Shown here: in pieces, positions 944-1,408 of the stretch
Layout of the letters: the number at the start of each line of letters is the position of its first letter
Position numbering within the stretch: position 1 is the first letter of the stretch
Assembly (NCBI GenBank): GCA_018970965.1
Contig: JAGWVG010000104.1
Coordinates: forward strand, 1-6,427
Direction of reading: 5' to 3'
Length of the DNA stretch: 6,427 nt
Source: Alphaproteobacteria bacterium
Lineage (GTDB): Bacteria > Pseudomonadota > Alphaproteobacteria > Sphingomonadales > Sphingomonadaceae
The notes under the pieces: generated by a model
The model's input: only the letters and a program-made list of their open reading frames with translations
Databases searched by the model: none
What the model was told of the DNA's origin: nothing
Made by a program: the position numbers and the translations under genes

Positions 944-1408
944 ATGAGCGATGAAGCGCACCTTCCAGCCGAGCAACCTTGTACGGGCTCGTCGTCACGG
1001 TTTCCGGGCTCGCATGGCGACAGTGGGCGGCCGTGCCGTGATCCGCGCACGCCGCGCACGCGGCCGCAAGAAGCTGTCCGCCTGATCACGCTGACAAAGC
1101 GGTCAGATTTTCTGGCTGCTAATCATGGAAAACGGGCCGCCTCTGGCGGCCTTGTTTTGCTTGTGCGTGATAGAGCCGATGGCAACCCGCAAATGCGCAT
1201 TGGCTACACTGTCACAAAAAAGACTGGCAACGCAGTTATCCGCAACCGGATGAAACGCCGTTTCCGCGAATTGGCTCGTGACCTGTTGCCGCACGCCGGC
1301 CTTGCGGGCGCTGATCATGTTATTATTGGCCGACCAAGTGGCGTGACGCGCGACTTTTCAGCCCTGCGGGCGGATCTAGAGCGCGCACTCAAGATGGTGC
1401 AGGGGTGA
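944..1408 (+). CDS. rnpA: Ribonuclease P protein component (start uncertain; longest frame engulfs rpmH)
   Basis: The core, from TLTKRSDFLAANHGKR to the end, is a standard RnpA: the N-terminal TKRSDF segment, the central RNA-binding motif NAVIRNRMKRRFRE and the late DHVIIGRP stretch are all present. RnpA binds the RNase P RNA and assists 5' maturation of tRNAs. From 944 the protein has 154 residues, about 47 more than the core. That extension is rich in Pro, Arg, Ser and Gly and is encoded entirely by the rpmH region read in another frame. No ATG, GTG or TTG occurs in frame between 947 and the TTG at 1157, and starting at 1157 would remove the conserved TKRSDF segment. The start is therefore either ATG 944, with a Shine-Dalgarno only 1 base away, or a non-canonical codon near the rpmH stop (CTG 1082, ATC 1085 or CTG 1091). 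Family identity is certain; the N-terminus is not. The stop overlaps yidD as TGATG. Confidence 0.9.
   Translation: MSDEAHLPAEQPCTGSSSRFPGSHGDSGRPCRDPRTPRTRPQEAVRLITLTKRSDFLAANHGKRAASGGLVLLVRDRADGNPQMRIGYTVTKKTGNAVIRNRMKRRFRELARDLLPHAGLAGADHVIIGRPSGVTRDFSALRADLERALKMVQG
951..1085 (+). CDS. rpmH: 50S ribosomal protein L34
   Basis: A 44-residue, extremely basic protein starting MKRTFQPSNLVRARRHGFRA and ending RGRKKLSA, which is the full length and near-invariant sequence of bacterial L34. It is a component of the large ribosomal subunit, where it is buried in 23S rRNA. It has a good Shine-Dalgarno (GAGGG, 8-base spacing). It heads the conserved rpmH-rnpA-yidD-yidC-engB block. A second ATG seven bases upstream (944) opens the rnpA frame, so the whole of rpmH lies out of frame within the longest possible rnpA reading frame. 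Confidence 0.97.
   Translation: MKRTFQPSNLVRARRHGFRARMATVGGRAVIRARRARGRKKLSA

What the first reader, a model, noticed from the sequence alone, without database searches (positions are those of the whole stretch)
944..1085. rpmH fully nested, out of frame, inside an N-terminally extended rnpA frame with start codons 4 nt apart
Seen: the rnpA frame is open without any ATG, GTG or TTG from 947 to 1157, and the conserved RnpA core already begins at about 1088. The only canonical start is ATG 944. It is separated by exactly four bases (AGCG) from the rpmH ATG at 951, so all of L34 would be encoded inside rnpA in another frame. Known: this geometry (complete out-of-frame overlap, start codons 4 nt apart, shared ribosome binding site) was described for Thermus RNase P protein. 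Inference: an alphaproteobacterium may have the same L34/RNase P linkage, adding a 47-residue Pro/Arg/Ser-rich tail to RnpA. Against it, the GAGGG Shine-Dalgarno is 1 base from 944 but 8 from 951, and L34 conservation alone could keep the frame open.
Basis: partly seen in the sequence, partly recalled or inferred. Interest (0 to 1): 0.75.

Follow-up and report, generated by a model that had tools for sequence, protein, structure and literature searches.

The report
L34 gene nested inside rnpA
[quoted passage not shown] in the papers we could search, this arrangement is otherwise reported only from Thermus.

Summary
ATG944 opens a 154-codon rnpA frame containing the whole rpmH gene (951-1085) out of frame; the next in-frame ATG/GTG/TTG is TTG1157, inside the RnpA core. 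Comparison turns a one-genome oddity into a lineage trait. Of 219 distinct family loci, 114 have ATG seven bases before rpmH; in 113 it is in the rnpA phase and open to the RnpA core, and the exception carries a 269-nt insert with its own Shine-Dalgarno and ATG. 71 of the 113 have no canonical start before the core. On a tree, the rpmH-rnpA spacer of ATG-7 loci changed length at least 31 times with one phase change; in other family loci 23 length changes brought 9-11. Translation from ATG944 is therefore likely (about 0.85) but was not measured. The geometry differs from Thermus (starts 7 nt apart here, 4 nt there) in the same relative phase. The extension is predicted disordered. I infer that the single Shine-Dalgarno, well spaced for rpmH and very close to ATG944, yields much L34 and little RnpA. 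A 2022 paper calls Thermus the only described case.

The parts
938..942 (+). GAGGG, the Shine-Dalgarno-like sequence; 1 base before ATG944, 8 bases before ATG951
   Evidence: in 102 of 113 in-phase ATG-7 loci an SD-like tetramer ends 0-2 bases before ATG-7, 11 have none
944..1408 (+). extended rnpA reading frame, 154 aa
   Evidence: likely translated, not measured
944..1084 (+). N-terminal extension of RnpA (47 codons before ATC1085), predicted disordered
951..1085 (+). rpmH, ribosomal protein L34, nested out of frame
1088..1396 (+). RnpA core (PF00825)
1085..1093 (+). ATC, ACG, CTG: the only near-cognate start candidates right after rpmH (rival explanation)
   Evidence: first codon after the rpmH stop varies among relatives (ATC 21, AGC 11, others 39 of 71)

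Best explanation
The rnpA reading frame opens at ATG944 and contains the whole L34 gene in another frame, and the RNase P protein is likely translated from ATG944 with a 47-residue N-terminal extension, using the ribosome-binding site that also serves L34. Shown by sequence: the open nested frame, the missing later start, its spread over many members of the family, and the preserved spacer phase. Inferred: a ribosome docked at the single GAGGG mostly starts at ATG951, which lies at a favourable distance (L34, needed in ribosomal amounts), and less often at ATG944, which lies very close to it (RnpA, needed in small amounts), so that start choice would set the L34:RnpA ratio. Predicted: the extension is a flexible Pro/Ala/Arg-rich tail in front of an ordinary RnpA fold. 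Inferred: the same phase arose in Thermus because L34 genes have only one alternative frame that is commonly free of stops.
For: (1) 113 of 114 family ATG-7 loci are in the rnpA phase and open to the core; with the group defined by ATG-7 alone, 97 of 97 are open across rpmH against 77 of 105 others. (2) A later canonical start is missing in 71 of 113 ATG-7 loci against 11 of 106 others (Fisher 1.7e-16, rows related); 9 of the 71 also lack CTG/ATT/ATC/ATA/ACG there. (3) Spacer length: 31 changes, one of them changing phase, in 98 ATG-7 rows; 23 changes with 9 or 11 phase changes in 31 other family rows (Fisher 0.0011 or 0.00013). (4) In the tree, the eight rows of the main clade without ATG-7 (L010, L054, five Rhizorhabdus-like rows, L083) and L240 with its insert all have an in-frame canonical start after rpmH. 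(5) Spacers of 28 loci without a later start have a coding-like GC by codon position (72.5/64.3/76.8%; their RnpA core 71.1/60.5/78.0%), against 68.4/66.6/65.8% in the stretches before the first start of 85 other loci. (6) T at third positions where it would make a stop in the extension: 0 of 519 against 23 of 574. (7) Negative control: 3 of 24 loci of other families of the order have ATG at -7, none with an open frame. (8) The predicted fold begins at residue 47, and query residue 50 aligns with residue 10-12 of several solved RnpA chains, so a start at 1085-1091 would trim the usual N-terminus.
Against: No protein or ribosome data. ATG944 is very close to the SD. L34 alone leaves this frame open in 77 of 105 non-ATG-7 loci, and those also avoid stop-forming T in part (4% against 23% elsewhere). 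Synonymous shuffles give fewer open frames than observed in both groups, nested or not. 42 of 113 ATG-7 loci have a later canonical start and could make a short RnpA. In 62 of the 71 without one, a near-cognate codon is present. The independent-pairs tests were underpowered and inconclusive (p 0.125-1). Most extension residues are dictated by L34, so their conservation is weak evidence.
Confidence: 0.85

Rival explanations
1. RnpA starts at a non-canonical codon right after rpmH (ATC1085, ACG1088 or CTG1091) by translational coupling with rpmH; ATG944 is part of the rpmH leader and the extension frame is open only because of L34.
For: ATC overlaps the rpmH stop by one base in the window. 62 of 71 loci without a later canonical start have some near-cognate codon there. 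The frame is open across rpmH in 77 of 105 non-ATG-7 loci too.
Against: 9 of 71 have no such codon; the first codon after rpmH is not conserved (ATC in 21 of 71). The spacer keeps phase through 30 of 31 length changes and looks coding. A start there would trim the predicted fold and the N-terminus of known structures.
Confidence: 0.1
2. Ribosomes translating rpmH shift frame near its end and make an L34-RnpA fusion, so phase is kept without ATG-7 being used.
For: Would also keep the spacer in phase.
Against: No reason for ATG-7 to co-occur with the phase (113 of 114 family ATG-7 loci against 41 in phase of 105 others by the counts) or for canonical starts to appear where ATG-7 is missing. No slippery site was searched for.
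Confidence: 0.02
3. Shared ancestry only: ATG-7 and the open frame are inherited and neutral, and RnpA is made in some other, unrecognised way.
For: The ATG-7 rows fall mainly in one clade, and the independent-pairs tests do not reach significance.
Against: 31 spacer length changes with one phase change within that clade are not explained by inheritance.
Confidence: 0.03

Closest known systems
Thermus rpmH/rnpA nested genes (Feltens et al. 2003, PNAS 100:5724; paper not held, known here through passages of PMC9841429 and PMC4892627)
   Same: rpmH wholly inside rnpA, out of frame, rnpA start first, one SD for both; same relative phase (offsets of 4 and 7 both leave remainder 1)
   Different: Start codons AUGGAUG in Thermus (one base between), ATGagcgATG here (four bases between); distant phylum; expression of both genes was reported for Thermus and is untested here
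Ambiguous AUGUG/GUGUG initiation sites of E. coli (pqiA, tamA, narQ; PMC9841429, passages)
   Same: One start region offers two frames
   Different: There the two start codons overlap each other; here they are separate and both frames encode known housekeeping proteins
Ordinary bacterial rpmH-rnpA-yidD-yidC cluster
   Same: Gene order
   Different: Ordinarily rnpA can begin after rpmH: a canonical start is there in 95 of 106 other family loci and in 24 of 24 loci of other families of the order

Membership tests
Thermus-type nested rpmH/rnpA | Complete rpmH ORF inside the rnpA ORF, out of frame | tested here: met
   113 of 219 distinct family loci
Thermus-type nested rpmH/rnpA | Start codons one base apart (AUGGAUG) | tested here: not met
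   Four bases between; spacer ATGAGCG 64, ATGAACG 30, ATGTCCG 8, others 11 of 113. Treated as a difference of geometry, hence 'variant', not membership
Thermus-type nested rpmH/rnpA | One shared Shine-Dalgarno | tested here: met
   One SD-like GAGGG before both starts; sequence only, use by both starts not shown
Thermus-type nested rpmH/rnpA | Both proteins made, RnpA extended | not testable with these tools
   Needs proteomics or ribosome profiling
Thermus-type nested rpmH/rnpA | Common descent of the arrangement with Thermus | tested here: inconclusive
   Thermus loci were not fetched. In the class, ATG-7 plus L34 start is in 3 of 289 genomes: the window, one more of its family, and one with stops throughout the frame. 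Independent origin is inferred
Bacterial RNase P protein (PF00825) | Profile match over the cut-off, solved relatives | tested here: met
   (78.9 bits, cut-off 22.3); 9 distinct PDB sequences; type A RNase P RNA also in the genome
Ribosomal protein L34 (PF00468) | Full-length profile match | tested here: met
   (79.8 bits, 1-44/44)

The most novel reading that the evidence does not exclude
A large part of the Sphingomonadaceae makes its RNase P protein from a dual-coding gene: the L34 sequence is translated in two frames from one ribosome-binding site, start choice fixes the L34:RnpA ratio, and RnpA gains a disordered Pro/Ala/Arg-rich tail. It is a second, independent origin of the Thermus arrangement, made repeatable because L34 genes have only one alternative frame that is commonly stop-free.
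Probability: 0.65. Interest if true: 0.85.

Novelty: new variant of a known kind. Interest (0 to 1): 0.74.

Why it matters
A 2022 paper calls the Thermus rpmH/rnpA site the only described bacterial case of its kind (PMC9841429, passages). Here a second, geometrically different case appears in records named Sphingomonas, Sphingobium, Stakelama and others, with natural losses and an insertion as controls. If translated, it gives a direct test of how one Shine-Dalgarno divides ribosomes between two frames, ties a ribosomal protein to tRNA-processing capacity, and would mean that rnpA start sites need checking in this family. It also suggests why the same overlap arises again: the other alternative frame of L34 was closed in 202 of 202 loci, while this one was open in 174 of 202 (97 of 97 with ATG-7, 77 of 105 without).

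Tried and rejected
Independent-pairs tests of ATG-7 against an open extension and against a missing later start: too few informative pairs, inconclusive. Conservation of the extension peptide (M1, E4, A5, Q11, R19, R40 invariant in 57 sequences, the window and 56 picked from the 120 listed) was not used as proof, since L34 dictates most of it. The count of stop-forming T is circular for its ATG-7 group (defined there as open), so, whose group is defined by ATG-7 alone, is used. Synonymous codon shuffles within L34 give fewer open frames than observed in both groups (97 of 97 against a mean of 61; 88 of 105 against a mean of 46, inside L34 only), so they do not separate nested from non-nested loci. 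RNA folding of 905-1000 showed nothing unusual (z 1.1). SD strength of the later starts (a match of 4 or more bases in 2 of 42 ATG-7 loci, 18 of 95 others, 12 of 24 in other families) is only weakly informative. The ATG-7 hit in G548 is chance: its frame is full of stops. Considered and set aside: sequencing error, since the same junction recurs in separate genomes.

Sampling limits: 'family loci' means loci of the window's GTDB family code f1 plus the 80 named loci, most but not all of which bear sphingomonad names. The 80 are the best of 402 matches to the window, and the 100 regions were taken from the best-ranked listed places (290 of 298 genomes had a match), so 114 of 219 is not a prevalence. 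In the even draw of the order (196 genomes) a recognisable L34 start is in 129 (113 of the family, 16 of other families) and ATG-7 with it in 34, all of the family. Ten of 274 loci were dropped because no rpmH was recognised near rnpA. Of 154 distinct long loci, 153 entered the tree; the shorter ones did not.

Full report
What is there. The window holds rpmH-rnpA-yidD-yidC followed by a GTPase gene. ATG944 starts a 154-codon frame ending at 1408. Residues 49-151 match RnpA (PF00825), and rpmH (951-1085, full-length PF00468) lies inside the frame at a different phase. There is no other ATG, GTG or TTG in the frame before TTG1157, which is well inside the core. The genome assembly (95% complete) has one RnpA match and one type A RNase P RNA, so this locus has to supply the RNase P protein as far as the assembly shows.

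Relatives. The window lies among sphingomonads: the two nearest named records in RnpA (79-80% identity) are MAGs labelled Sphingomonadaceae bacterium and Sphingomonas paucimobilis. In the first 118 loci (one without rpmH) the sequence ATGARCG before the rpmH ATG recurs in Sphingomonas, Sphingobium, Stakelama and others. Of 274 loci, 264 had a recognisable rpmH next to rnpA; after removal of identical junctions 219 family loci and 24 of other families of the order remained. ATG-7 is present in 114 of the 219. In 113 it is in the rnpA phase and the frame is open to the RnpA core. In the window's genus, 11 of 13 genomes have an rnpA match; 10 of the 11 have ATG-7 and none of the 10 has a later canonical start before the core. 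The eleventh, L010, has TTG at -7 and three starts after rpmH. In the other families 3 of 24 have ATG at -7, none with an open frame, and all 24 have a start after rpmH.

Is the extension translated? Four lines say likely. First, 71 of 113 ATG-7 loci have no ATG/GTG/TTG between ATG-7 and the core, against 11 of 106 other family loci without one after rpmH; nine of the 71 lack CTG, ATT, ATC, ATA and ACG there too. Second, the spacer between rpmH and the core takes 17 lengths, 2 to 113 nt, in the in-phase set. On trees of RnpA plus YidC (153 rows) its length changes at least 31 times among 98 ATG-7 rows, with a single phase change (L240). Among 31 other family rows, 23 changes bring 9 (IQ-TREE quick) or 11 (FastTree) phase changes (Fisher 0.0011 or 0.00013). 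Third, the spacers of 28 loci without a later start have the codon-position GC pattern of coding DNA (base by position chi-square p 1.8e-11, rows related). Fourth, in the tree the eight rows of the main clade that lack ATG-7 (L010, L054, five Rhizorhabdus-like rows, L083) and the insertion row L240 all have an in-frame canonical start after rpmH. L240 is telling: compared with the 2-nt spacer of its neighbour, a 269-nt insert with inverted-repeat ends (seen by eye) breaks the phase and brings an in-frame ATG preceded by GAGGAGGGAGCG.

Against. L34 composition alone keeps this frame open fairly often (77 of 105 non-ATG-7 loci), so openness by itself is not proof. 42 of 113 ATG-7 loci also have a later canonical start. 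The independent-pairs tests are inconclusive. No expression data exist here.

Mechanism. An SD-like tetramer ends 0-2 bases before ATG-7 in 102 of 113 loci, with none in 11, that is 7-9 bases before the rpmH ATG. From general knowledge of SD spacing (recalled), this favours rpmH and disfavours ATG-7. I infer that ribosomes mostly start L34 and now and then RnpA, which would suit the smaller need for RnpA (recalled). The base after ATG-7 is A in 105 of 113 loci (spacer counts). The AlphaFold model on 57 sequences gives pLDDT of about 50-68 for the first 50 residues by blocks of ten, with the first structured element at residue 47 and a confident RnpA-like order of helices and strands after it. 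Extension composition over the 113 loci: Pro 15%, Ala 14%, Arg 12%, Ser 9%, Lys 0.3%.

Databases. A search with the 154-aa form found 7382 proteins at E 1e-20 or better of 7638 candidates; all 120 listed are 152-192 aa, some named ribonuclease P protein component by their source. Gene callers thus already write long forms mechanically. This is not evidence of expression.

Literature. PMC9841429 (passages) describes Thermus rpmH in rnpA with 5'-AUGGAUG-3' and says it is the only described case. PMC4892627 (passage) names it as one of two documented overlapping gene pairs known to its authors. PMC8528312 and PMC13349992 were seen only in their reference lists. The original Thermus paper is not held. 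The searches listed no title or abstract that reports it in sphingomonads; apart from the four papers just named, the listed papers were not opened. Most subscription journals are outside the library, so an unseen report is possible.

Distribution and origin. In an even draw of the order, ATG-7 plus L34 start occurs in 34 of 113 family genomes with a recognisable L34 start and in 0 of 16 of other families (196 searched). In the class it occurs in 3 of 100 genomes with that start (289 searched): the window, one more family member and one chance case. The ATG-7 rows fall mainly in one clade; two with ATGTCCG (L028, L035) sit apart with low support, so one or two origins are possible, and L260 of another family has ATG-7 in phase but a closed frame. 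Independence from Thermus is inferred, not tested.

Verdict. The nested reading frame is real and evolutionarily maintained; its translation is likely but unproven. It is a new variant of the Thermus arrangement with a different start geometry.

Noticed in passing
window 1134-1152: Terminator-like hairpin with a T-rich tail inside rnpA. By eye a similar GGC-GCC...GGCGGCC then GTTTTG/GTTCTG run is in 9 of the 11 loci of the genus. It may be coding-driven or an attenuator below rpmH.
   Followed up: partly
L240, between rpmH and rnpA: A 269-nt insert with inverted-repeat ends has shifted the rnpA phase and carries an in-frame ATG with a strong SD, in effect an escape from the overlap.
   Followed up: partly
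L028 and L035, 7 bases before rpmH: ATGTCCG form of the arrangement in genus g85, placed outside the main ATG-7 clade with low support: possible separate origin.
   Followed up: no
L013 and L148, upstream of rpmH: Family loci without ATG-7 and without a canonical start after rpmH, but with in-frame starts further upstream of rpmH: possibly other forms of extended RnpA.
   Followed up: no
window 560-859: Ninety-nine-residue ORF upstream of rpmH with no Pfam match, followed by a terminator-like hairpin at 895-919.
   Followed up: no
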